From: Saururus chinensis
Lineage: Eukaryota > Streptophyta > Magnoliopsida > Piperales > Saururaceae
Assembly: GCA_035235625.1 (NCBI GenBank)
Contig: CP141143.1
Coordinates: 2,896,501 to 2,960,500 of the forward strand
Direction of reading: 5' to 3'
DNA length: 64,000 nt
Shown here: positions 8,231 to 63,844 of the stretch, piece after piece
Numbering within the stretch: position 1 is the first letter of the stretch
How the letters are laid out: every line of letters begins with the position of its first letter
Made by a program: the position numbers and the translations under genes
The notes under the pieces: model-generated
Databases searched by the model: none
What the model was told of the DNA's origin: nothing
Seen by the model: the letters and a program-made list of their open reading frames with translations, nothing else

Positions 8231-8235
8231 ATAGT
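8231..8235 (+). repeat. Target-site duplication ATAGT, left copy (outer LTR)
   Basis: ATAGT sits directly before TGTAATGCCCG. The same five bases follow CCTTACA at 17917-17921. This pair delimits the whole 9.7-kb insertion. Confidence 0.85.
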
Positions 8236-8894
8236 TGTAATGCCCGCGATTTTTCATACTTATTCCTCAAAATTTACAGAAAATTTTTGTAATATAACTG
8301 CTATAAATCGGGAAATACGAAGCCTGTGAAAACAGTTTTATAAATTAAAACATAACACATCGATTTTCCCATACAAACTTTTACTCATTCAATCAAACAT
8401 CGTACGGCCAAACTAAACATCCATAGGCGCCACTCGAAAACAACCGTACAAATAAATTGCTATGATCATAGACTTTAAATACAAATCTCTCCTAGGCATC
8501 CCTAAGTGCAAGTCTCATAACAATCCACAGTCTAATCCAATCGAAAGTTCAGAAAGATAAACATCTTAATTCTTATCTCACCCAATACATCATATCGTTG
8601 CATAAATAAACTTGCAATGAGTCAAGCATATACCTGAGTCAACGAGAATCAATCCACCGCTGAAATGAGCATCCATCTCCAGGAGCTCTCCGACACAACT
8701 TGCAAAAGTCTCCCGTACAATGAGGCTAAAAAGTAGGGTAATAAGTATTTTTATACTCAGTAGGAAAATACCCAGTAGGGGAATCCAAAACAGTGAACTC
8801 ACTAAGTTCATAAATACATGCGTTTATGCAACTCAAACATGAAGTAGTCAACATAATATAATCATAATCACACACATATGCATTCAGTCATACC

Positions 8895-8962
8895 AAATGC
8901 ACCATCGTGCCAAAATCATACCAAATGCACCATCATGCCAAAATCATACCATCAAATTAAAC
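8895..8962 (+). repeat. 29-bp tandem repeat in outer LTR
   Basis: Units with CCAAATGCACCATC followed by TGCCAAAATCATA occur about twice. The inner LTR has about four units of the reverse complement at 17050-17160, so copy number differs between the two LTRs. Confidence 0.75.
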
Positions 8963-9174
8963 TTACACAAACACCCTTATTCAGGGTCTTACAAACTTAC
9001 TCATACCACTGTACGCTTACTCATACAATATAAGCATACTTGTACGACCTTACTTATACAATCATATGCTTACTTATACAGCTTACACATACTTGTACGA
9101 CTTTACTCATACAATCATACTTGTATGACCTTACTCGTATAGCTTACACAAAATCACACTTACTATCTTACTCA

Positions 9175-9310
9175 GAAACATACTCTCATAATCGTACTCA
9201 TACACATACTCTTATAATCGTGCTCATACACATACTCTTACAGTCGTGCTCATACACATACTCTTACAGTCGTACACATACTCATACTCTTATAGTCGTA
9301 CATATACTAT
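9175..9310 (+). repeat. Tandem repeat array of CTCATACACATACTCTTA units
   Basis: Units of about 28 bp made of CATACTCTTA and a CGTRCTCATACA-like part repeat four to five times. The inner LTR carries the reverse complement at about 16855-16955. Confidence 0.7.
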
Positions 9311-9539
9311 CGACCATTGAAGCTCATTACAACTAATAAGCTCCAACGTCGAATGGAAAAAAATGTCACTGGGGCAACACCTTAACCTCCGGGGAGTGAC
9401 TAGACCCCATGAACTTTTCCGAAGGTAAGGCACACCAATGTTCATGGGGCACTGGATCAAACAGGTAAGAGTAGATCCATGATACTACATACCTGAGCGC
9501 GCAAACATAAACACCCACACATAAGGGGTCATACAGTTG

Positions 9540-9680
9540 CCCACCATAATGGGTCTTATAGTGCCAATGCCACTCTTGGGCAGAAATCATACAGTGCCAC
9601 TTGGGCAGAAACATACAGTGCCACTCTTGGGCGGAATCATACAATGCCACTTTTGGGCAGAAATCATACAACGCTCCCAA
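9540..9680 (+). repeat. Tandem repeat of GCCACTCTTGGGCAGAAATC units
   Basis: Four to five short units containing CACTCTTGGGCAGAAATCAT and ACAGTGCC follow each other. A shorter version is present in reverse complement at about 16485-16560 in the inner LTR. Confidence 0.65.
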
Positions 9681-9685
9681 TAGAA

Positions 9686-9915
9686 CATCAAACGTTTGGG
9701 CTTAATACAACACACAGACCAAATCGAAAACATACGTCGCTCTCAACATAGCATCAGACGTCTGGGCTTCATACAACACACAGACAAAGTCGAAAATGTA
9801 CATCGCTCTCAACAGAGTATCAAATGTCTGGGCTTATACATCACGCAGACCAAATCGGAAACATATGTCGCTCTCAACAGAGCATCAGACGTCTCGTGCT
9901 CTATATAGTACACAG
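9686..9915 (+). repeat. About 66-bp tandem repeat, 3.5 copies
   Basis: Each unit contains CGCTCTCAACAGAGCATCAG, ACGTCTGGGCTT and CACACAGACCAAATCG in that order. The inner LTR keeps only about two units (16380-16480, reverse complement), which explains part of the length difference. Confidence 0.75.
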
Positions 9916-10624
9916 ACAACATCCCGCAGGATAAACACCATGGCAAGACATGAGAAATGCTCGACCGACTCATTATCAGCTAACTCAAACATGGAACTTA
10001 ATCCGTTGAACCCTCAAGTCTCAAACTCACAACGCTATCATTAGCTTTCTTATAATTCAAGTTTGAATTAAATAATTATGCCAAACAAACTCACAGTCCT
10101 CGACTGATCAAACCGAAGCAGGGCCCAATCGAAACCCAAGTTCGTCAGGGCAGTAGACTTCACTTAACCCGTCCACATCATGATCATAACACATCGTACA
10201 TCAAACCCTTACAGTCTTACATACCTCGCCATCCACCTTATGGCCAAATCATCTTACATTGACATCATCAAATAAAGCTCCTCAAAGCCAACCCAGTTGT
10301 TGCCCCCTTACTTATATCTCACTTATTATGCTTACTTTTTACTTCATAATCTGTACGTTATGCTTGTACAATTATGCACACTCTTACTGTTTGACAAACC
10401 TCACCTGTCATACCCATATCCACTGTTATCCGTTATACGCTTACACATCCATATCCAAATCCATACCAAACACTGACACTTCTTACCATCCATAGCTCAT
10501 ACCTTTACCCACATACACATACACATATCCATAGTATAGGCAAATAGCCATCATACATACATATGTCCATCACACATACGCATAACGTACACATACTGCC
10601 ATGCATACGTAGCTAACAAACTTG

Positions 10625-11060
10625 CTTACTAGCCATCACTGGCGCATACATATATATATTTATACAAACTTTAAACATGCACGCTAGCCATCACTAGCAC
10701 ATGCATACACATACATACATACTTCAAACATGCACGCTAGCCTTCACTAGCACATGCATACGTATCCATATACATAGCTTACCAACAAACACGCTAGCCA
10801 TCACTAGCACATGCATATATACATCAAGCATACACGCTAGCCATCAGTAGCACATGCATACATACGTCAAACATACACGCTAGCCATCACTAGCACATGC
10901 ATAATCCATACATACTTCAAATATACACGCTAGTCATCACTAGCACATACATACACATACGCTTACCAACAAACACACTAGCCATCACTAGCACCTACTC
11001 AATCAACATACGAAGCTTACCAACAAACACGCCAGCCATCACTAGCACATACGTACATCC
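10625..11060 (+). repeat. CTAGCCATCACTAG tandem array, about nine copies
   Basis: Units of about 40-55 bp share a core ACGCTAGCCATCACTAGCAC followed by ATGCATACATAC-like sequence. The core is an imperfect palindrome (CTAG-CCATCA-CTAG). The mirrored array in the inner LTR is at 15190-15605. Confidence 0.85.
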
Positions 11061-12635
11061 AACATACTTACATCCAACATGCATGTCATATGCATTTCAA
11101 CATACCATATAATCATGCTTACATGTACATCATGCAATCGGATTGTTACTTAACATCCAAAGCATAGAATCATCCAATCCTAACATGCTGCTACTCATTC
11201 AAAGCATGCTATCATGACATTACGAGTTCAAAGCTCCCCTACCTCATAATCATGACATTCGATGGCGAGCACATGATGGTGGGGGTGTCGGCGGCAGAGT
11301 TGGGGCCAAAAGCTTTGCCAAGTGGAGAGAGCTGTGTTCCCGAGGATTTTAGGAAGTGCCGGAAACAATCACGGCCAAACAGGGTGTCAGAAGTCAATGC
11401 GGCAAAATCTGCGATCCACGGCAGCACACTAGGGCGGCCAGGAGAATGTCGTGCCAATATAAGTGGCGGTGCCACCAGAAGTCGATGGTGTACTCATTGA
11501 AGATCGGCCGGTGGCTAAGACGTACTCGGCTGGCCACAAGATGTCGAAATCGGCCGTGGACAACACCCAATGGCAACGATTTTGCATCAACAAGGGCCCA
11601 CATATGAGCGGAGAGCATGGGGCAACGCTTAAGGACAAAGGAGATGTGTGGACAACTCTCATGTCAACTCTCCGATGATCGGGTGGTGCAAAAGCGGTGC
11701 CTAAGCCCAAAAGCATACGTGTGGCCACATGCACACGCGGCCAAAAAGGACCACTCTAGGGGAGATGCGTTGGATGGTAGCAGCCCAAGGCCCACTAAAG
11801 GGCAACTGAGCTATGGCCAATATATGGTGGCCGATCGAAGCGGCGTCATCGCCGATCGCCACCCACAACCAATACACGTGGTGCAGGTAGCTGTGCATCT
11901 CGCACAGCATAGGGCAAAGGCAAGCGGCCCATTCCGAGCTGAGGTATAATTGGGCTAAGTGAGGCTGACCCTTACTGTCGCCGAGCCGAGGTAGATCACG
12001 ATGGCCAAATGGCACACAGCTCGCTGATGGCAACAACCCGAGATGCACCCAAAGCGTCTAATCGGGCAAAGCAAGTCAATAGGGCAAAGCGGGGTTGGAA
12101 ACAATAACCCCCTATCGATACTAGGTCGAGGTAGGCTAGACGGAGTCCATCTGGTGGCCAAACGATGATCGGAAACACACCGGCGTCTCAAAAAAACCCA
12201 CGGACAGTGAGATAAAAAATATGACCAAAACCTGACCAAGGCACCAGTAGCTCACAACGGAGCGAAGAAAGCATGGCGGCGGTTCTAGTCAGCGCCTATG
12301 GGTTCTTAGCGGCCAACTAAACATAAGTCTAGTTGAGGGCGGCCGCACATGACATCAAAATCGTACCCCCTAGCTCAATAACGAGATTGAAGGAGAGAAA
12401 AACCCGAAGAAAAGTTCGGTACCTCGTGGAGGAACGAAGAGGCTGTGGCGGTGGTCATAGCTAGTACCTACAGACTCGTGGCAGTGAGGCAAAGAATATC
12501 CTGACAAGAACTGGTAAAATCCGATGATGGAGGAGGGTGAACAGAGCAACCGAAAATGGGCTCGGGTTTCTCTCCTTTCTCTCTGGACGTGAAATGTTAC
12601 TGAAAGTCGAAAACTTCCTGGAATCTGATCTTCGG

Positions 12636-12637
<2 letters not shown>

Positions 12638-12687
<50 letters not shown>
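12638..12687 (+). repeat. (TA)n microsatellite, about 25 units
   Basis: A pure TA tract lies inside the outer LTR. I see no counterpart in the inner LTR, so it expanded, or was present, in one lineage only. Confidence 0.95.
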
Positions 12688-12815
12688 AAAATTTTACATT
12701 TAAGTCCCTAATACGCGTTAACCTCCCATTTATGCATTGTAGCTCCAAAATTCGTGCTGTAAGCGCACAGTGAGGCCCATGGCCTGCGACTAAGCCCCAC
12801 ACCCGACTCTACGGG

Positions 12816-12823
12816 TATAAATA
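12816..12823 (+). promoter_or_regulatory. Predicted LTR TATA box (outer)
   Basis: TATAAATA lies in a stretch conserved between both LTRs (ACTCTACGGGTATAAATATG). In the uninterrupted outer LTR it would be about 120 bp from the 3' end, a sensible distance for a short R-U5. The inner LTR inserted only six bases downstream of it. Confidence 0.6.
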
Positions 12824-12828
12824 TGGGG

Positions 12829-12833
12829 TATGT
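12829..12833 (+). repeat. Target-site duplication TATGT, left copy (inner LTR)
   Basis: TATGT directly precedes TGTAAGGTCCC. The same five bases are at 17807-17811, directly after GGGCGTTACA. This pair marks the inner insertion. Confidence 0.88.
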
Positions 12834-12946
12834 TGTAAGGTCCCTGATTTTTCTATGATTTTCTGTCATTTTTCTGCTATTTTTTTGGTTATTTTCGGCG
12901 GGAAAATGTGATGCTTCAGTGTATTCATATTTGTATACATACCCTA

Positions 12947-12954
12947 TATTTATA
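12947..12954 (-). promoter_or_regulatory. Predicted LTR TATA box (inner)
   Basis: TATAAATA on the minus strand is the counterpart of the outer TATA box, about 115 bp from the inner LTR 3' end at 12834. Confidence 0.55.
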
Positions 12955-13130
12955 CCCGTAGAGTCGGGTGTGGGGCTTAGTCGTAGGCCACGGGCCTTGC
13001 TGTGCGCTTACGGCGCAATTTTTGGAGGTACGATGCGTAACTAATGAGTTAACGTGCGTTGGGGATATGATTGGAAAAAAAGGTGTACATACAGGATCAG
13101 GCTTGGGCTCGGTTGAGCCCAATCCCGAAT

Positions 13131-14050
13131 GTTATGTATAGTGCCTCCCGTCCCCCCCGGCTTCTCTCTGTCCTAGCCACCATCGGCCGCCGGTGGGCCT
13201 CAAGGCCGCCGCCACCGCTCCGCCCCGGTTGTGCCACGGCAGGGGGGCCACCGCCCCGACCGCCTACAGCCGCTCCGCCCTCCGCCCCATCTCCCCGGTT
13301 TGCTCTATCCCCACTGTTTCGTTTCATTTCGCCGCGGCCGTGGGCCGGCAAGGGCAGGCAGGCCACCCACGGTTCTGCCCTGGGCTGGCGACGACGGGAG
13401 GACACCCCTCCCAGCCCATGGGGCCTCTGCTTCGCCGCCCCAGTTCTTTTCTCCTTCTGCCCTGTTTTCGCCGGAGTTTTGTTTCGGACGAATTAGTGGC
13501 CGCCGGCGGTGAGTTACGGCCGACGGACCTCCTTCCGACCCCGCCTTGGTCTGGTGACGGTGATGGATGATCTTTCCCGACCCAATTTTGCCTCCACCCA
13601 GCCCGCACAGCTCCGGCCTCTCCTTCCTTCTTCACTGTTCCGGTCTCCATTTCGCTGGTTCCCTATTGCAGTCACCATCGTGGGCTGACAACGGCCGACC
13701 AGACCCCGGTTCGGCTCTGCCCTGACCTTGAGGAGGAGGTAGGCAGCCGCTCTTGGTCTGGCACTGCCTCCTCCACCCCGGCTGAGCTTCACCGTTCATC
13801 AGCCGTTCCGCCTCCGTTTTAAAAACAGTGTTTTTCCACCGTTATGGGTTTGGTCGGGTGAGCTTTAGATGGCCAATGGCTAGCAACCTCTAGTAAGCCT
13901 CCATACAGCTAGTCTCGGCCCGATGTAGCTGGTGTAGCCGCCTTGGCCCATCCCAGTTCCATTTTTTCCTAGTCAGCCCCTTTGTGTTTGGCTTTTGATG
14001 CCATCGGCATGTGCCGGCAGTGGCCGAATGGCCACCGGGGATTCCACCCC
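13131..14050 (-). other. GC-rich block specific to the inner LTR
   Basis: Strongly GC-rich, with many CCGCC and CGGCC words, in contrast to the AT-rich surroundings. Open frames of up to 141 codons occur on both strands, but they reflect base composition and none resembles a known protein. I found no clear counterpart in the outer LTR, where about 11.95-12.70 kb occupies this place. Confidence 0.5.
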
Positions 14051-15189
14051 GGCCTAGTAACGACTGGAGACAGTCCCACTTTGCCCGGCTTGATCGCCTA
14101 TGACCCGTGCTCCTCCCTTTGGCTCACAACCCTAACTATTCCGCTCACTAGCATGTTTGCCCATTGACCCTTCTTGCCCATTTTACGCCGTCGATACCGG
14201 ATGGCTTTTGGCAAGAATTTGTATGACTTACCTTCACAGAAGGTGGACGAGTTCACCTGCACAGGCCTTGGCTAGTGACGGCCTCGTGGCCTTTGCTTGA
14301 CCTTGAACCCTCCCCTTGCTCTCTGTCGTGCGAGATGCACAACTACCCGCACCATTAGTTTTGGTTGTGGGTAGTGATCGGCAACGTCGCCCTTTAGTTT
14401 GGCCACAGCTAGGGCCTTAGCCCTGTTGGCTTTTGTGGGCCTTGGGTCGCCTCCTTTCAGCCCTCTCCCCCGCCCCTTTGGGCCGCATGTGCATGTGGCC
14501 ACCCGTGTGCTTTTGGGTTTAGGTGCTGCATTCGCACCACCTGACCATCGGTTGGCTTTGCCACCAAGTGGAGTTGACACTTAGCCCTTCTCCACCTCTC
14601 CTCTATCCTCGAGCGTTGCCCCAAGCTCTCCGCCCTTATGTGGGCCTTTGTTGATGCGAAATTGTCGCCGTTGGGTGCTGTCCACGACCGATTTTGACGT
14701 CTTTGTGGCTGGCTGAGTACGTCTTAGCCACCGGCCGATCCTCAGTGAGTACACCCTCGACATCTAGTCACACCGCCATTCTTGTTGGCTTGACTTTTCT
14801 CCCGGCCGCCCTAGTGTGCCGCTGTGGATCGCGGGTTTTGCTGCATTGACTTCTGACACCCTGTTTGGCCGTGATTGTTTTCGGCACTTCCTAAAATCCT
14901 TGGGACAGTAGCTCTCTCAGCCAGGCAACGGTTTTGACCGCCAACTCTGCTGCCGCCACCGCCACCGTCGTGTGCTCGCCATCAAACGTCATAATTACGA
15001 GGTAGGGGAGCTTTGAACTCGTAATTTCATGAAGCATGCTTTGAATGAGTAGTAGCATGCTAGGATTGTATGATTCTATGCTTTGGATGTTAAGTAACGA
15101 TCCGATTGCATGATATGCATGTAAGCACGATTATATGGCATGTTGAAATGTATATGACATGTATGTTGGCTGTAAGTATGTTGGATGTA

Positions 15190-15605
15190 AGTATGTGCTA
15201 GTGATGACTAGCGTGTTTGTTGGTAAGTTTTGTATGTTGGATGTAAGTATGTGCTAGTGATGACTAGCGTGTTTGTTGGTAAGTTTTGTATGTTGATTGA
15301 GTATGTGCTAGTGATGGCTAGCATGTATGTTGACGTATGTATGCATGTGCTAGTGATGGCTAGTGTGCATGTTTGAAGTATATTTGGTTTATGCATGTGC
15401 TAGTGATGGCTAGCGTGCATGTTTGGAGTATGTATGGATTATGTATGTGCTAGTGATGGCTAGCGTGTATGTTTGACGTATGTATGCATGTGCTAGTGAT
15501 GGCTAGCGTGTATGTTTGACGTATGTATGCATGTGCTAGTGATGGCTAGCGTGTATGTTTGATGTATGTATGTATGCACTAGTGATGGCTAGTGAGCATG
15601 TTTGT
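15190..15605 (-). repeat. CTAGCCATCACTAG tandem array in the inner LTR, about nine copies
   Basis: Reverse complement of the array at 10625-11060, with the core GTGCTAGTGATGGCTAGCGT repeating every 40-55 bp. The unit spacing differs from the outer copy. Confidence 0.85.
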
Positions 15606-17049
15606 AAGCTACATATGTATGATCATATGTGTATGTTATACGTATGTGTGATACATACGTATGTATGATGGCTATGTGCCTATGCCATGGATATGTATAT
15701 GTGGATGTGGGCAGCGGTATGGGCGATGGACAGTAAGAGGTGATAGAGGTTTTGTCTGGATTTGGATATGGACGTGTAAGCGTATGATAGATGACAGAGG
15801 ATATGAGTATGACGGGCAGAGATTAGAATGGATCGGTTTGGGTTGGATTGTATATTGGGTGATTGTCAGACAGTAAGAGTGTGCATAATTGTACAAACAT
15901 AATGTACACATTATGAAGTGAAAAGTAAGCATAATAAATGAGATATAAGTAAGAGGGCGACAACTGGGTTGGCTCTGAGGAGCTTCATTTGATGAGGTCA
16001 GTATAAGATGATTTGGCCATAAGGTGGATGGCGAAGTATGTAAGACCGTAAGGATTTTGGTGTACGATGTGTTATGATCATGTTGTAAGATGGACAAGTT
16101 AAGTGAAGTCTGCTGCCCTAACGAACTAGGGTTTCGATCGGGCTCAGCTTCGGTTTGATCAGTCAAGGACTGTGAGTTTGTGTGGAATAATTATACCGCA
16201 TAATTTACTTAATTCAAACTTGAATTATAAGCACAACTAATTATAGTGTTATGAGTTTGAGACCTGAGGGTTCGATGGATTAAGTTCCGTGTTGGGCTAG
16301 CTGATAATGAGTCGGCTGAGAATTTTTCATGTCTTGCCATGGTGTTTATCCTGCGGGATGTTGTCTGTGTGCTGTATAGAGCACCGGACGTCTGATGCTC
16401 TGCTGAAAGCGAGGAATATTTCTGATTTGGTGTGCGTGCTGTATAAGCCCAGATGTTTGATGCTCTGTTGAGAGTGCTGTATGATTCCGCCCAAGAGTGG
16501 CACTGTATGTTTCTGCCCAAGTGGAACTGTATGATTTCTGCCCAAGAGTGACATTGGCACTATAAGACCCATTATAGTGGGCAATTCTCTGGCACTATAA
16601 GACCTATTATAGTGGGCAACTGTATGACCCCTTATGTGTGGGTGTTTATGTTTGCGCGCTCAAGTAAGTAGTATCATGGATCTACTCTTACCTATTTGAT
16701 CCAGTGCCCCATGAGCATTGGTGTGCCTTACCTTCGAAAAAGTCCATGGCGTCTAGTCACTCCCCGGAGGTTAAGGTGTTGCCCCAGTGGCATTCTTTTC
16801 CATTTCGACGTTGGAGCTTATTAGTTGTAATGAGCTTCAGTGGTCGTTGATATGTGTACGATTATGAGTACGACTGTAAGAGTATGAGTATGAGCACGAC
16901 TGTAAGAGTATGTGTATGAGTATGATTGTAAGAGTATGAGTATGAGTAAGACAGTAAGTGTGATTTTGTGTAAGCTGTACGAGTAAGGTCGTACGAGTAT
17001 GATTGTACGAGTAAGGTCGTACAAGTATGTGCAAGATGTATGAGTATGC

Positions 17050-17160
17050 GTACGATGGTGCTTTTGGTATAATTTTGGCACGATAGTACATTTGGTATGA
17101 TTTTGGCACAATGGTGCATTTGGTATGACTTTGGCATGATGGTGCATTTGGTATGATTGT
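17050..17160 (-). repeat. 29-bp tandem repeat in inner LTR, about four copies
   Basis: Units with ATGGTGCATTTGGTATGA followed by TTTTGGCA. The outer LTR has only two such units at 8895-8962. Confidence 0.75.
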
Positions 17161-17806
17161 ATGCATATGAGCATGATATTGATATGCTTCTGCTTCATGT
17201 TTGAGTTGCATGAACGCATGTATTTATGAACTTAGTGAGTTCACTGTTTTGGATTCCCCTACTGGGTATTTTTCTTTGGAGTATGAAAATACTCATCACC
17301 ATACTTTTTAGCCCCGTTGTACGGGAGGTTTTGCAGGTTGTGTGGAGAGCTCTTGGAGATGGATGCTCATTTTAGCGGTGGATTGATTCCCGTTGACTCA
17401 AGTATGCTTGACTCACTGTGAGTTTATTTGTACCACAATCCGATGTATTGAGTGAGATGAGAAGTTAGATGTTTATATTCTGGACTTTCATTTGGATTAG
17501 TCTGTGGACTGTTATGAGACTTGCACTCAGGGATGTCTAGGAGAGATTTATATTTAAAGTCTATGATCATAGCAATTTATTTGTATGTGTGTTTTCGAGT
17601 AGCGCATGATGATATTTGCTTTGGCCGTACGATGTTTGACCGTATGATGAAAATATTTAGATGGAAAATGGATGTTTAGTGTTTTAAATTATAAACTGTT
17701 TTATCATGTTTTGATTTCGTCATTTTTCCTCCGATTTACAGACATTATATTGTAAAAATTTTCAGTGAATTTTAAGGAAAATATGTGAAAAATCTCGGGC
17801 GTTACA

Positions 17807-17811
17807 TATGT
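17807..17811 (+). repeat. Target-site duplication TATGT, right copy (inner LTR)
   Basis: Matches 12829-12833 and directly follows the inner LTR end. Confidence 0.88.
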
Positions 17812-17916
17812 ATACATAAATACTAGTATACTATAGCGTCATATTTTCTTGTTAAAAATGACCAAAAAAATAACAGAAAAATCACAGAAAATCGTAGAAA
17901 AATCAGGGACCTTACA

Positions 17917-17921
17917 ATAGT
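17917..17921 (+). repeat. Target-site duplication ATAGT, right copy (outer LTR)
   Basis: Matches 8231-8235 and directly follows CCTTACA, the outer LTR end. Confidence 0.85.
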
Positions 17922-35900: not shown

Positions 35901-38900
35901 CAGAAGCTTCCTTGTTCTGTAAATGTTGCATCCAACAGGCACCAAGTTCCCATTTGATATATCTTTCAATACGTGGTGTGGCTTCTTGTATCTTGGCTAA
36001 GCTATCATCGAGTATTCTTCTCACGAGGCTCTTAGAAGCCTCAAGTTCATCAATTGTGGGAACGGAACTGACTGACCTATGGAGCAGAAACCTTAAGCTG
36101 CAATAGATTTCAAAATATATAGATACAGTTATTATGACCGAATGAGACTAAAAAATCTAAATACGAGTATGACATGTTGACAACATTGAGATTTCATTGT
36201 ATGGGAATAATTTGTTACACTTGAAATCAGCGAAGTAAATTGATAAACTGCATAATGACAACAAGAAACTAAACTATAACGACAACAAGAAACACAGGAA
36301 TGCATCATCTTTAAGATACTGGAATGATGATCTTATATCACAAAAACTAAGAGGTCATTTCAAGAAGCAGGTCTAAACAGAGTTAACTCTTACATGAGAT
36401 GCACCTTGACATGGTTGGAAAACTTATAGCCCTATACAAATTCAGTCTATACTAGAAGCCATTTAGGTGGAATAGCTTGTCCCTAATTCTACTCTATTTT
36501 GTTTTAGCTTTGGCATCATACCTGTTGACATTTAAGGCATTAGCACCTCCATCCGGTTGATCTTCAACCTCAATGTCCAGTTTGGTACTGTGTTCATTCT
36601 TCACATCACCCCTGACTCTCACAGTTGCCGTGTATCCACAGTGTCTGACAACAACGACACCAAAGGTGGAAGTATCCTGCATTGGTCCTATGTCTGTTCA
36701 GTCCCTTACTAAATGCGACTGAGGGATAAAATCAGGAAAATGATTTCTTACATGAACAATTACGCTCTCATCTGCCGTTATCCCCTTGAGGAGATTCCTT
36801 TTAGAGACCTCCTTATGTGACATACCAGGCACCAGTCCACTCTCAAATTTGTCATCTGGATGAGAGATGGCATCAGCCAAATCTTTTTTTATCATCGTAT
36901 GTAATTCACCCGTCTGTTCTTCATATAATACCGATTCTGAAGAACACTCCTGCAGACATCTTGTGGGCAGTTGGCCATCTACTAGACGCCTAATCAATGA
37001 AACAGCCTTGCAGACAGAGATATCCACAAATAGATTGTGTAGCAAAAAGGCCTTCCTGTCTCGGACTTGTCTCTCCTGCTCGGTTTTGGAGGGAAGGCTT
37101 GCCAGTATTGAGAACTCTCTAGCCCATGGCCTATGATCCTGACCACCTTGCGCCAGGCCTCCTCCACTGCCACCCCAGCTTTGGTCTTCCTTTGGCAGAG
37201 ACGGAAATTTGGCGGGAGAACCAGCAGCCACCGGAGGGACAAGCCATGTGTTTGCACGAAACCCATACGGAAGATTTCCAAACTGGAGAACAGAACCGCA
37301 TGCGAATTTTTATCTATGGCTGTGAAAATTTTTCTAAGTGATCTCATATAGGATAGGGAAAATTCAGTCTCACCTTATTGTGTTCCACAAATGCCGTCAT
37401 CAAGGAATCATAAGCCTGTAGATAACGATTAACTGTTTGTTAGCTGTGGTAGATGAAGAGCACTTACAACAACTACATCTATCATACTGAAGTGATTGGT
37501 TGGTGCAACAATATCTAAAGTGAACAGGCCGTCGCATGACACCCGTGCATATAAATCCATAAAAGAAGACTTTCATTCAGACCAGAGAAAATTATTCACA
37601 CAAAAGCAACGGAAGAACGAAGCCATGATGGACTACTATCAAAGATGGTATCCGATTGCAACCCAGCTCAAGATTTTCTCCGCTTTACTCAATCAAATAA
37701 AATATTTGATTCATCCATCTGGGTTCCCAGGAAGATGTTACGTTAAGTTAGAAAAAGCTTTTAAAAACACTCACATTAGCAAAACCCCGGCTCAGCTGCT
37801 GCAGAAGATCCACAAGAGTGTGGCTGAGAATTTGTGGCCTTCCCACTGGGTAAAACCCCTTGACTGAAGCGACCACTGTCACCAGCTTCCCATTGCATAT
37901 TTTCACCTGCGCGCCAAACAATGAACAACTACATTGATATAAAATATTGACATTGCTGATAATCATGGCTGAACAGCTACTGTATTGCAGTAGGCAAACT
38001 CCTTCAATTTCTTTATTTTTATTTTTTTGCATTCCCATGAGATTGGCCTACTGCAAAAGTTGGTGCATTTTTCTCCGATTTCTTTTCCTAATCTATTTTA
38101 AGGCAGAGTACATTCCATTCCATGCGAAATTGGCATTTACAGTGTTCGTTACTTAGGAGAGAAAAGTCAAAAATATATGTTAGATGCCATAACTTCTGAA
38201 GCTTTTCCCCCAATTTTCACTGAAAATCAAATAAGGCGAAACTCCTTTGAAAGAAACGTTGAACAACGTAGAGTCGTGTAGGCGTGGTATCTCTGCAACG
38301 GTCAAATGGTGGCGGGACCGCGGGAAAGTGGAAGTTTAGGCCCAGCCTCATTTTTTGCGACTTGGGCCCAACAGGATTATGACCCATTAAATCCTATCAC
38401 GTGATCTGACTACGGTCCACCGGATACCTCCTACTGACAAGGCCTACCCATGAAAGGTCAAGTGGGCCTTGCTTGTGATGGCTAAAAACCGAAGGGCAAA
38501 AGGGCCACCATTTGCCTAGCTTGCGAATAAAAATGGCAAAAAAACTTTTATGACAATTGAAAATTAATAATTCCTTCCCTTGATTAAGGTTTAGCGTTAG
38601 TACATCAAGGCCCAATATGGTTCGTAGTCAGTCATAAAGATGTCCACTATGCTCGGATCTATACGAAACCGGTCAGGCTAGACAGGTGATCTGGCGACGG
38701 TCCACTGGATACCTCTTACTTAGCAAAGGCCCACCCAGGAAATGTAGATGGGCCTTGCATTGTAATGGGCAAAAAAAACCAAAAGGGACCAGACATTAAA
38801 AACGTACCTCCAATTCGAAATAGTCGCCCTCTCGCCTTTCCTCCGCTACACGCTCGCATCTCTTTATATCTGAATGCATTCACATCAATTTCGCCTCCCA

Positions 38901-49770: not shown

Positions 49771-50449
49771 TTTGTGTAATAAAGAACTAGTTATTCTGAA
49801 TTCCCGTGTATTCTATTTTGTGTGATGAAGAACTTGTTATTTTGAATTCATGCGTTAAGGAATTCGACTATAACTTAAGTGGCACAAAAAAAAACCTTTT
49901 CTATATTTTTATTAATAAATTTATATATTGGATTCCGTTTGCTCATCATTGAGAACTATTGATTGGTTAGTGGGTATTATCTTTTACGGTTCATATTCTA
50001 GATTCGGTTTATCCTGTAGTGTTATAGTGCAGTAATAATGTTTAGTAATAATAATCGGACACGAAAAAGTAAGAACTCATCGGGCCTTACTCGGGTTTAA
50101 TTATATCCCTTGAGACATACAGATAACGAATTAATTGTAAGGTGGGCTTCCGAGCAGAGGCCCACTATGTTTTTTGGCCCATTATTGAAGAGGATTCCAG
50201 ACGGGAGTAGCCTCACCATCCATCTCTGGCCCCCGGCCAGATGGGCCCAGATCTGCTGTGTGCGCGACCGTTCCGCCACAAATAAAAATATCTGTCCAAC
50301 GGAAGTAAATGATTAGCTTTTGCTGTCCAGAGGTCGCTCCATTTTTTGGGGGGGCCTTAAAGCCTCTCTTAAACCTCGAAACGCCTCCGAGTCTCCTTCG
50401 CACACTCCATCAGCCGCTGCTCTTCGCTTCCATCGTCTCTTCTTTACAC

Positions 50450-53400
50450 ATGGCTGCAGTCTCCTCCATGGATTTGGCTACCAGTCTCCTCGGCTTCGCT
50501 AGGCGACAGGCCAACACAATTCGGATTCCGGCTTCCGTCTTCTCTCTTCGCCGCCACTGCCATAAATTTTCCCTTTCGAGTTCTCGTCCTAACTCGATTG
50601 CCATTCAATTCGTCAAACCGACCCCTGCGAACCGGAGTTCCTTCCTGAAATTGCGGCGGCAAGTTCGTTCCTTTGCTGCTTCGGCTACGACCGAAAATGA
50701 TGCTCCCTCGGATTTGTCCACTAAGATTCCCCCCGATAATCGAATTCCCGCCACTATCATCACTGGATTCCTTGGCTCCGGCAAGGTTCTTACAACTTGA
50801 AGATTCTTTTATTCTCTTCCCGTTCCACTCCTGTTTACTAATTCCCTCCGTCTCGTATTAATAGCAACCTTTGGAAAAATAGTGATTTTTATTGATATTA
50901 ATAGCAACCTTTGGAAAAATAGTGATTTTTATTGATATTAATAGCAGCCTTTGGAAAAATAGTGATTTTTATTGATTGGTGAAACGCACTTATATGAGAA
51001 GGGAAAATAAGATTAGGGTACTCTTTTTTAAGTACTCAATCAAACAAATGGAACTATTAAGATGGATTTTTTTTTTTTTTTGCCGAATGGAGCTACAAAT
51101 TTCGGACGGAGGGAGTAATTTTGATGCCCCCGACACAAGAAATAACTGGTCAACCTCACTAATGGCTTCTGTATGTTATTTTATTTGTATATTTTGATAG
51201 ACAACTTTGCTGAACTACATTCTGACGGCAAATCATGGAAAGCGTATAGCAGTGATTGAAAATGAGGTATTCTGGCTCAAAACTTGGTCACGTAACGAAT
51301 AATTTTATTTCTCTCTCTTAACTTTTTTTTTAAAGATCTACTGATAAATTTCTATTCATGTTCACGATTATTTTGGCAAATTACATGCTGTTTATTAATT
51401 CTCATATATCGATGATCCATATGTCTTAGACAAAGCTAATTCACAGGCTGGTCATGTCTCATATGAGTTCGTTCGTAAAAATGAACTTTAGTGCAAAAAT
51501 GCTGCTTTCAGACACTGTTATCTTGTGCAAGGCATGTGCTGCATACTTGTTGATGGAAAATCTAGTGATCTTGTAGTTATCTATTCGTTTGATGTTATTG
51601 TGTGTTACGGACTTTTTTTTTTTAATTCTTTATTAAATATTCTTGTGAGGAGTTCCGCCAAAGACAAGGTCTATTGCATGTTAAATGACAATTCCATGTC
51701 TTATGTGCAAATTTTCAGCTTAGCAAGTATCATTGTTTCAATGTTTTACTATGACCCATTTCATGAAATATTCATTTCAGTTTGGTGAAGTTGATATTGA
51801 TGGTTCATTGGTGGCTGCTCAAAAAACTGGTGCTGAGGACATAGTGATGCTCAATAATGGCTGTCTCTGCTGCACTGTGAGGGGAGATCTAGTTCGTATG
51901 ATCGCAGAATTAGTTGATAAGAGGAAAGGGAAGTTTGATCATATTGTGATTGAGACTACAGGTAGTTTTGGTTTCCTTTTTTTAAAAATTTTGAAAAATG
52001 TTCCCATCTTCAGTATATCACTGGCAATCATGAATCAGTGCATTGTCTTGTCTACATGCATAAACTTGCAGAAGATATCATGCATACTCATGCTTTACTT
52101 GACTTGCTTTGAACATCTGTTTTTGGGTACTTTTTGGAGTTTTCAATTTCTTAAGCTCTGTTTATTCCTTTGCAGGCTTGGCCAACCCTGCACCTATTAT
52201 CCAGACGTTTTATGCTGAGGATAAAGTTTTTAATGATGTAAAGTTGGATGGCGTTGTTACCTTGGTTGATGCAAAGCATGCAGGGTTTCATCTCGATGAA
52301 ATTAAGCCCCAAGGAATTGTCAATGAAGCAGTGGAACAAATTGCATATGCTGACCGCATTATTGTGAACAAGGTATAATAATTAGTGGGTTGACGTATTA
52401 GGAAAACAGTTTCAAATGGCAAGCCATGGGCAACCAGCCTTGCACTCGCCAAGCATGCTGAATAATTGATTTTTTACTCACAAAGAAGTACTTGTCATTC
52501 TGCAGACTGACCTTGTTGATGAACCGCAAATCTCTTCTTTGATTCAGCGGATAAAGGTTGTAGATCATTACTTGTTTTACAGAATAAATTAGGTTTTGTT
52601 ATGCTATCTTTTTTCTTCTTCTGATGGGCACTTAGCTTGTCTCTATGCTCAATTATCAAGTGCAGAACATTAATCAAATGGCTTATCTGAAGCGGACAGC
52701 ATATGGTAAAGTTGAATTAGATTACGTTCTTGGGATTGGAGGCTTTGATTTGGAAAGGTCTTAGTTCTTTCTCCTTTTTTGATTGATTGGTTCTAGCAAT
52801 CTTCCTTTTGGAAGAGAACTAACTTTACGTTCCCATTGTGTGGTACACAGTAATTGATATTGTTCTTTCTACATTCTTTTATTGGATATTTGTTACTCTT
52901 GCTGTCTATGTTTTATACATTATATGTTTAAAAAATACAATGTAATTTCATAGCTGGAACTTACTTTATTGGAGTATAACTTCTTCCTTCAAAATACTCA
53001 AAGGAAGGTCAGGATTTGGAAATTTTCTATTTCTAGGGGGTAATTTGGTCTTTCCATTCTTTTCTGAACTATTCTTAAAAGTGGGGTGTTGGACGAAGCA
53101 GTCTTCACATTGAGCTTCATCAGGACCTTGCTATGACTGTTATTTTTATATCAGTGATACCTTGAGCTAAGTCTGGAATAGATAACTATCTGGTTTTGTA
53201 TTTTGCTGACTAAGTGATGTAGATCTAGCTGATATCACTTAAATGATGTATAGTGATGCTGGTAACAATTGGAAAATAATCATTTGTCCAGTGAAAAATT
53301 GGTGGCTGTCGGATGTTGATCTTGTTTCCTAGCTTCAAATGTGTTTTTTTCTGTCACTCTTATGTAGTTTGTTAATCTGGAAAGGAACTGATTCAATTAA

Positions 53401-55690: not shown

Positions 55691-59060
<3,370 letters not shown>

Positions 59061-61728: not shown

Positions 61729-63844
61729 ATGGAGGTGGAGGGTTTCTGCCGAGACGCCCTCGCTTTAGAGAGGATGGTTTGCTCAGTGTTGGAGTCTCTC
61801 GTGTTGGAGACGGTTTTAGCCCTCTCCAAGTCATTTTTTTGGCTTCGCTTTGGGGTACTCACTCGGCATATTTTCTCACTCTACTCTTTACTGCATCAAT
61901 GTTTTTTGTCTGATAGTTTAGGCCGTGAATATTTGGAAGTTTGCATTTTTTTGGTTGGCTGTTTGTTAAGTTTTTTTTCTTCTTTAGTTTGGGCAATTGT
62001 TCAGCTTGTTTATCGAAGCAAAAATGAAGTTCGAAACTGGGTTTATGCTATTGTTCCAGATGTTTTTTCATATACATAGTGGAGGATTTATGCACAATTA
62101 TAGGAAATAGTTTACCTTTTTCCATACTTACTGCTTTTTGTTTGGTTTATAATTTATTTGGATTCAGTATTTCATTCTTTGCTGGCTTGGTATATTTGTA
62201 ATTTAGAGTAAAAAAGAGTTTGTATGTTAATATCGAAGCTGTAAAACCATTTTTTATTGTATATTCGTAGCTGCAAATTTGTACATAAAAGTTTACTTCG
62301 GATCTAGTGTTCTGTCTTTAATTTCTTGAAGATTGAGAGGATGTTTTAATTGTCTATAGTAAAACAGCTTGGTGTTGCTTATTTGTTCTGCGTTTATGTT
62401 ATATTTTTGTATTGTTTGTAACCGTAGTACGTTTCAAACCAATCTGCATGTTATGAAGAGTATGGATATACGGAAAAGTTTTAATGGTTGATTCTGTTTT
62501 TATTTGTTTTCCGTTTTTTTCTTGTCAGTACGGTAGTCGAAAGTACTGAAGTCTTGTGTAAAGTTGAGTGTCTCTACTTTATTTTGTGTCAGAAGATATT
62601 CTCCTCTTTTTCTTTGCTTTCTCCTTGACGTCTGACATGCTGGAGAACCTTGCTATTTTTATCCCATTTCTGGAATTGATTATATTTTCTTTACTTGTCT
62701 TTTTAAGGTCCATTTTTGTCCTTTCTTACAAAAAGGATTGTAGAAATGTAAACCTTTTTGTTCATTATGGTTGAGCTTCTACATTTGGGTGGCTACTAGA
62801 TTGTTCATTCTTGAGAAGGATTTTGGCGGCAGCCTGCATGTGCTCTATAAATTGCAGTCTCCTTTTTGTTTTGTTTGGCCCTCATAAACAGAGCAAAACC
62901 TCATAAAATATGTTCATCGCGGGGCCTTTGGGAAGGGAATGCGGTTGTTTGGATGGAGAGCCTCCTGAGATTTCTCTGCGTCTCGATTTTAGGTGCCCTT
63001 CACCTACTCACACGCGTTTCTCTGAGTGATCAACTTCCAGTCTTTGGAAACAGATTGTGATTGGCTATGTCGAGCTTGATTTTTGTTTGAGGTTTAAACA
63101 TTTAGCAAGTGAAAATTTTCTTTCATCATAAAGACTCACTACTTACTAAGGCGTGGGCGAAATTTTGACTTTTCATTGTTGCACTGTACTCCAGCAAATA
63201 GCTTTGTGTACATAGGGTGTTTTTTAGGCTACACTTATCTGTGTTTTTGTGCAAAGTTGGGAAACATTATCACTGGAAATTTATTTTGCATTAGTTTTGT
63301 CTACTATAATTAATCTCTGACTTTCCTTAATATGTTTTTTCCCTAGATGAGCTTGCAGTCCAATCCTACTGGTGTCCTGCCAAAAAATTCCAGTGTACTT
63401 GAAGGGTGGGATACTGGGATCTTTTGCCATTTTGGTTTGCTTTTCTGTATCCTGTTGATGAAAATTGTTGTGATGGTATTTCTAACTTGTCAATGGTTGT
63501 CCAGGAACTCCTTAACTATTTTAGGTGGAAGCACTAAAAAATCTGCCCCAGAGAACAAGGATGACGGTGAGACAGATGATGATGAAGATGATGATGATGA
63601 CGACGACGATGGAGATGATCAAGATGATGATGGGGGTGAGGATGATTTGTCAGGTGATGATGAAAAAAATGACGACGATGATGACGATGCAGAAGCTAAT
63701 GGGGAAGAAGGAAGTGAGGATGAAGATGATGACGACGATGAAGATGAGGATGATGATGAAGACGATGGTGACGATGATGATGATGACGAAGATGAAGAAG
63801 ATGATGAGGATGCTCCTCAGCCACCAGCTAAGAAGAGAAAGTGA
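61729..63844 (+). CDS. Acidic Asp/Glu-rich, probably nuclear protein
   Basis: I do not recognise a named family. The best model has three exons: 61729-61776 (MEVEGFCRDALALERM), 63347-63405 (MSLQSNPTGVLPKNSSVLE) and 63505-63844. The last join gives LEGNSLTILGGSTKKSAPEN, then about 80 residues that are almost all Asp and Glu, then PPAKKRK, a likely nuclear localisation signal, and TGA. The frame is fully kept and the protein would be about 148 aa. Such tails are typical of histone- or ribosomal-protein-binding acidic proteins, but no such domain is visible here. The first exon is the weakest part. The donor ATG|GTTTGC is acceptable, but an extra exon in the 1.57-kb intron, or a start at the ATG of 63347, cannot be excluded. 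Confidence 0.65.

What the first reader, a model, noticed from the sequence alone, without database searches (positions are those of the whole stretch)
8231..17921. Two giant solo LTRs of one family, self-nested in opposite orientation, both with intact target duplications
Seen directly: the outer insertion starts TGTAATGCCCG, ends GGGACCTTACA and is flanked by ATAGT. An inverted copy (12834-17806), flanked by TATGT, splits it 105 bp from its 3' end. Neither has an internal region. LTRs of 4.7-5.0 kb are at the extreme upper end for plants, and two recombined copies stacked head-on are unusual. The reading as solo LTRs, not another class of large element, is inference from TG/CA ends plus 5-bp duplications.
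Basis: partly seen in the sequence, partly recalled or inferred. Interest (0 to 1): 0.78.

Follow-up and report, generated by a model that had tools for sequence, protein, structure and literature searches.

The report
Nested solo LTRs, giant non-autonomous retrotransposon
Two leftover end-repeats of a very abundant plant jumping element sit one inside the other; the element itself is unusual because its two 5,000-base end-repeats enclose only about 1,700 bases with no recognisable gene, and most copies seem to have collapsed to a single repeat.

Summary
Outer copy: 8236-12833 plus 17812-17916 (4,703 bp, duplication ATAGT). Inner copy: 12834-17806 (4,973 bp, duplication TATGT), inverted inside the outer. 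Both are solo LTRs. The 516-Mb host genome holds 2,742 LTR 3' ends (at most 1 mismatch; control 0). Of 20 sampled units of 4.5-5.3 kb, 14 have exact 5-bp duplications. Copies with internal sequence show a primer-binding site after one LTR and a purine tract before the next; these put the inner copy on the sense strand.

In 33 paired elements the interior is 1.53-3.06 kb (28 of 33 at 1.53-1.67 kb). Three interiors read in full have no sense frame above 79 aa. This is a non-autonomous, Del/Tekay-like family with LTRs three times its interior. Only 2.5-9% of LTR ends, by different counts, still adjoin interior signals, so roughly 10-40 LTRs stand alone per such copy. One complete copy is recent (2 differences in 1,439 LTR bases compared). 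Head-on self-nesting is common (3 of 20 sampled): the window's arrangement is ordinary, the family is the interesting part.

The parts
8231..8235 (.). target-site duplication ATAGT, left copy (outer insertion)
8236..12833 (-). outer solo LTR, larger piece (sense strand is minus; 8236 is its U5 end)
   Evidence: sense
11921..12691 (-). GC-rich variable stretch of outer LTR, not alignable with the inner copy's
12829..12833 (.). target-site duplication TATGT, left copy (inner insertion; also outer LTR sequence)
12834..17806 (+). inner solo LTR, 4973 bp, TGTAAGGTCCC...CGGGCGTTACA
12945..12952 (+). TATA-like site of the inner LTR (LTR position 112); the inner element hit the outer LTR just before its counterpart
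   Evidence: the role is inferred
13079..14312 (+). GC-rich variable stretch of inner LTR
15176..15621 (+). array of 43-56 bp repeats in the inner LTR; counterpart 10629-11079 in the outer
17807..17811 (.). target-site duplication TATGT, right copy
17812..17916 (-). outer solo LTR, smaller piece (its U3 end, 105 bp)
17917..17921 (.). target-site duplication ATAGT, right copy

Best explanation
Two successive insertions of one non-autonomous, Del/Tekay-like LTR retrotransposon family, each since reduced to a solo LTR. A complete copy elsewhere in the genome is about 11.4 kb: LTR 4.9 kb, primer-binding site, 1.66 kb of non-coding interior, purine tract, LTR 4.9 kb. Inferred steps: it is transcribed from its LTR, then copied and integrated with proteins supplied by an autonomous Ty3/gypsy element. 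The two 4.9-kb LTRs, only 1.66 kb apart, then recombine within the element, deleting the interior and one LTR and leaving one LTR between intact 5-bp duplications. The outer copy arrived first, on the minus strand; a later element landed on the plus strand 105 bp inside the outer copy, near its TATA-like site, and collapsed in the same way. Shown: boundaries, duplications, order, sense, the complete anatomy, absence of recognisable coding capacity in the copies read, excess of lone LTRs. Inferred: helper proteins in trans, and recombination as the route.
For: Exact TG..CA ends and 5-bp duplications for both. 2742 LTR 3' ends and 2157 LTR 5' ends genome-wide, control 0 for both. Paired ends on C1: 40 of 49 pairs are 4.46-5.29 kb. 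Of 20 of these 40 read at both flanks, 14 have exact duplications and 3 match 4 of 5; control 0 of 380. A primer site follows 87 LTR ends, 69 of them with at most 1 mismatch in the LTR part. Pairing primer sites with purine tracts gives 33 elements, 28 with interiors of 1527-1670 bp, none in 3.1-25 kb. Three standard-length interiors are 93-94% alike with no sense frame above 79 aa; four of their open frames, including the longest antisense one (144 aa), have no Pfam match. One complete element has LTRs of 4890 and 4889 bp and duplication TAAGC, with 0 of 806 and 2 of 633 differences between LTR ends. Three Ty3 elements with the same 14-base primer site and gag-like frames are in the genome; two were confirmed by Pfam as gag plus protease.
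Against: The autonomous helper was not identified: the three gag-bearing elements read share the primer site but no LTR or interior sequence detectable by blastn, and only their first 2 kb or so were read. Not every sampled unit is a clean solo: of 20, 2 have no matching duplication and 1 is a 5' LTR. The lone-LTR excess depends on the count: 190 of 2157 LTR 5' ends have a purine tract at up to 3 mismatches, which would put it near 9 to 1. No relative's empty site could be read. The outer copy's subfamily ends were read in only 7 non-window copies and none showed a primer site; a dedicated pattern count for it did not complete. Only 100 of 190 purine-tract junctions were listed, and recorded only the nearest listed tract.
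Confidence: 0.93

Rival explanations
1. Solo LTRs of an autonomous Del/Tekay family whose LTRs flank gag-pol; the 1.66-kb interiors are one deletion derivative.
For: Ty3 elements with gag-like frames and the same primer site exist. The internal 3' end looks like that of Del elements (the resemblance is recalled). 54 of 87 primer sites and 67 of the 100 listed purine tracts remained unpaired, so some copies are unseen.
Against: 0 of 33 paired elements has an interior above 3.06 kb. 20 of 20 sampled junctions of unpaired copies (8 of 54 primer sites, 12 of 67 tracts) carry the same non-coding interior, though in some only 30-206 bp of it.
Confidence: 0.05
2. A large DNA transposon or other non-LTR class of about 4.9 kb with 5-bp duplications.
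For: Thousands of discrete units with constant ends and mostly no interior.
Against: Primer sites, purine tracts and, in the element read at both ends, paired LTRs. None of the 17 open frames of at least 110 aa in the window LTRs has a Pfam match at E<=0.01.
Confidence: 0.01
3. Assembly artefact (a false inverted join).
For: Long inverted repeats can mislead assemblers; no reads were available.
Against: Two independent exact duplications; copies only about 80% alike, so not a duplicated contig; the same arrangement recurs elsewhere in this assembly.
Confidence: 0.01

Closest known systems
Del/Tekay chromovirus lineage (Ty3/gypsy)
   Same: Long LTRs with a poorly conserved GC-rich 5' part; U5 end with GGG at -8 to -10, the published type A (PMC4029996 sections 14 and 15); same primer site as gag-bearing Ty3 elements of this genome.
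   Different: No coding interior found. LTRs of 4.9-5.0 kb slightly exceed the 4831-bp maximum in PMC4029996.
LARD (large retrotransposon derivatives, e.g. Sukkula, Dasheng)
   Same: Conserved, structurally uniform, non-coding interior; presumed to depend on another element's proteins (definition in PMC7215508, passages).
   Different: Interior 1.66 kb, whereas one paper describes the LARD core as usually over 4 kb (PMC4668562, passages); another defines LARD only as longer than 4 kb (PMC6696364, passages), which this element meets. The original LARD paper was not held.
TRIM
   Same: Short interior, no coding capacity.
   Different: TRIMs have short LTRs and are at most about 4 kb in total; this is 11.4 kb.

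Membership tests
LTR retrotransposon (solo LTR) | TG...CA ends with short target duplications | tested here: met
   both window copies; 14 of 20 sampled copies exact
LTR retrotransposon (solo LTR) | complete copies with two near-identical LTRs, primer site and purine tract | tested here: met
   one element read at both ends of both LTRs; 33 primer site-tract pairs
LTR retrotransposon (solo LTR) | gag-pol in autonomous members | tested here: not met
   none in 33 paired elements or 20 further junctions: the family as seen is non-autonomous; not all junctions were read. Non-autonomous members of the class are known to lack it
Del/Tekay chromovirus | integrase with chromodomain | not testable with these tools
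   interior is non-coding; the helper was not identified
Del/Tekay chromovirus | U5 attachment end of type A, GGG at -8 to -10 | tested here: met
   CTCGGGCGTTACA read against PMC4029996 section 14; that text gives no letters for positions -3 and -6, so these were not compared
LARD | uniform non-coding interior between LTRs | tested here: met
LARD | large core, usually over 4 kb (one paper's wording) | tested here: not met
   1.53-1.67 kb in 28 of 33
TRIM | short LTRs, element of at most about 4 kb | tested here: not met
   LTR 4.9 kb, element 11.4 kb

The most novel reading that the evidence does not exclude
Most solo LTRs of this family may never have existed as complete chromosomal insertions: with 4.9-kb LTRs around a 1.66-kb interior, the cDNA could recombine before or during integration and a single-LTR form be inserted directly with its own 5-bp duplication. 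That would explain why solos dominate although the family was active very recently. The evidence here does not separate this from collapse soon after insertion.
Probability: 0.06. Interest if true: 0.7.

Novelty: new variant of a known kind. Interest (0 to 1): 0.36.

Why it matters
Solo-LTR formation is expected to rise with LTR length and fall with the distance between LTRs; rice data in the same paper supported LTR size but not interior size (PMC1940013, passages). This family is an extreme natural test: very long LTRs and an interior too short for genes. Only about 2.5% of its LTR 3' ends still show a primer site and 3.5-9% of its 5' ends a purine tract. A pear survey reports solo-to-intact ratios of 6.93 for Tekay and 2.0 for LARDs (PMC4668562, passages); methods differ. 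It also warns annotators that thousands of 5-kb repeats without genes can be LTRs. The nested pair in the window is itself ordinary.

Tried and rejected
A 14-base pattern from the LTR end in viral contigs gave 93 stretches; I took these as chance matches and did not study them. Rfam (gathering scores) and tRNA scans of the window were empty. A global alignment of the two LTRs gave 80.3% over 4318 columns but includes a non-homologous stretch, so I quote local matches. Dating with elements on C8, C6 and C11 failed: no LTR match in the windows fetched for the 3' ends of the first two, and the C11 5' LTR is reduced to about 310 bp, leaving 57 bp to compare; only the C1 element was dated. Three elements with the same primer site proved to be a different, gag-bearing family, not the direct helper by sequence. 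The DNA transposon and short-LTR element readings were rejected. The host was not identified, so I cannot say whether the family is already annotated. Literature searches; in the titles listed I saw none that names such a family, and I opened only seven papers in part.
Full report
Observation. The outer unit (8236-12833 and 17812-17916, 4703 bp) is flanked by ATAGT. It is split by an inverted unit of the same family (12834-17806, 4973 bp) flanked by TATGT. At the split the inner copy's own homologous sequence runs on without a break, which serves as an internal empty site. Two random 5-mers of this window agree with probability 0.0015. The main colinear matches between the copies are 78-88% identical; a GC-rich stretch near the U3 end does not align.

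Host. The window lies in a 516,460,831-base genome of 11 contigs. Neighbouring frames match a calcineurin-like phosphoesterase, eIF3_p135 and CobW. I read it as a plant; the species was not identified.

What the unit is. LTR 3'-end pattern, at most 1 mismatch: 2742 sites, reversed-pattern control 0. LTR 5'-end pattern: 2157 sites, control 0. On contig C1 I paired 75 of the 100 listed starts (those within the range of the listed ends) with the 100 listed ends: 49 pairs, median 4949 bp, 35 of 49 within 4.7-5.2 kb and 40 of 49 within 4.46-5.29 kb. For the first 20 of these 40 in coordinate order I read both flanks: 14 have exact 5-bp duplications, 3 match 4 of 5, 1 is a 5' LTR followed by a primer site, and 2 show no match. 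Control: 0 of 380 mismatched ends.

Sense and complete copies. Among 36 non-window LTR 3' ends (29 like the inner copy, 7 like the outer), one is followed by GT-TGGTATCGGAGCC, a primer-binding site (that such a site pairs with initiator Met tRNA is recalled). That copy has a 4.93-kb LTR, an interior, then GGGGATGAAATTTTTTCGAGGGAAGAA directly before the next LTR. Hence the inner window copy is in sense on the plus strand and the outer on the minus strand. None of 29 non-window LTR 5' ends has such a tract directly before it, though one of them has interior sequence about 1.3 kb upstream. Genome-wide, 87 LTR ends are followed by the primer site (at most 2 mismatches), 69 of them with at most 1 mismatch in the LTR part, that is 69 of 2742 or 2.5%. 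The purine tract plus LTR start gives 190 sites at up to 3 mismatches. Of the 100 listed, 75 have at most 1 mismatch in each part, 3.5% of 2157; all 190 would be 8.8%, an upper figure because a short tract with 3 mismatches also arises by chance.

The interior. Pairing the 87 primer sites with the 100 listed purine-tract sites on the same strand within 25 kb, nearest tract taken, gives 33 elements. Interiors are 1527-1670 bp in 28, and 2032, 2037, 2112, 2644 and 3059 bp in the rest. The 3059-bp one is the same interior with an insertion. Three typical interiors are 92.8-94.4% identical, with no sense frame above 79 aa; antisense frames reach 144 aa. Four frames, including both of these, have no Pfam match. 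Of 20 junctions from unpaired copies (8 of 54 primer sites, 12 of 67 listed tracts), all 20 carry this interior, between 30 and 650 bp of it in the roughly 600 bp fetched. Room for gag-pol was found in none of these. Ty3 elements with the same primer site but different LTRs are present: three were read in part, and two give Pfam gag and RVP_2 matches.

Recent activity. A complete element on C1 (25118995-25130433, minus) has LTRs of 4890 and 4889 bp, a 1660-bp interior and duplication TAAGC. Its LTRs differ at 0 of 806 aligned bases at one end and 2 of 633 at the other; the middle of the LTRs was not compared. At a recalled rate of 1.3e-8 per site per year this is of the order of 50,000 years. 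The window copies have only more distant relatives: the best listed non-self match is 94% for the inner copy's last 400 bases and 90% for the outer's first 501 bases.

Lone-LTR excess. Counting two LTRs per copy that still shows interior signals, the other LTRs per such copy are about 38 (69 primer sites of 2742), 27 (75 tracts of 2157) or 9 (190 tracts of 2157). I therefore say roughly 10-40; some of these are truncated copies, not clean solos. Published comparisons seen: pear Tekay 6.93 and LARD 2.0 (PMC4668562, passages); 15 species with a regression intercept of 2.69 (PMC7251063, passages). Rice data link LTR size to solo formation (PMC1940013, passages). Methods differ, so the comparison is rough.

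Self-nesting. Of 64 non-window LTR flanks (200 bp each; the window's own and the primer-site copy left out), 10 lie in an LTR of the same family, 6 in the same and 4 in the opposite orientation. Of the 20 C1 units, 5 have LTR sequence of the family on both sides (one with a weak match on one side), 3 head-on and 2 in the same orientation, all 5 with exact duplications. The window's arrangement is therefore common in this genome.

Comparison with known kinds. The U5 end fits type A of Del elements, and the variable GC-rich 5' part fits the variable 5' CpG island of Del LTRs (PMC4029996 sections 14, 15 and 20 read). It works like a LARD, but its interior is shorter than the 'usually >4 kb' core given in PMC4668562, and its LTRs exclude TRIM. 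I class it as a new variant of a known kind: a giant-LTR, short-interior, non-autonomous Del/Tekay-like family. Membership in Del/Tekay by integrase could not be tested.

Noticed in passing
L163, genome C4:22991680-22993888: A 2.2-kb unit starting TGTAAAGACCCG and ending GGGTGTTACA sits in the 3' LTR of the C4 element with duplication GTCTA: by its ends a solo LTR of another family.
   Followed up: partly
L167, genome C11 near 191221-191530: A 5' LTR of this family reduced to about 310 bp: roughly the first 228 and last 54 bases remain, next to a normal interior.
   Followed up: partly
L189, genome C1:9641939-9642258: Primer site, about 200 bp of interior, then an LTR end again: a compact rearranged copy.
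   Followed up: no
window 37496-37867 +: An open stretch that reads like a gag fragment by eye but has no Pfam match.
   Followed up: partly
window 50856-50976: Three nearly identical 40-bp repeats (98% match) shortly after an open frame (50309-50800) that precedes a CobW-domain frame.
   Followed up: no
window 12638-12684 and 56510-56618: Perfect TA runs; the first lies in the outer LTR.
   Followed up: no
window 63347-63844 +: Open frame with a long run of Asp and Glu near its end, coded by GAT-rich repeats.
   Followed up: no
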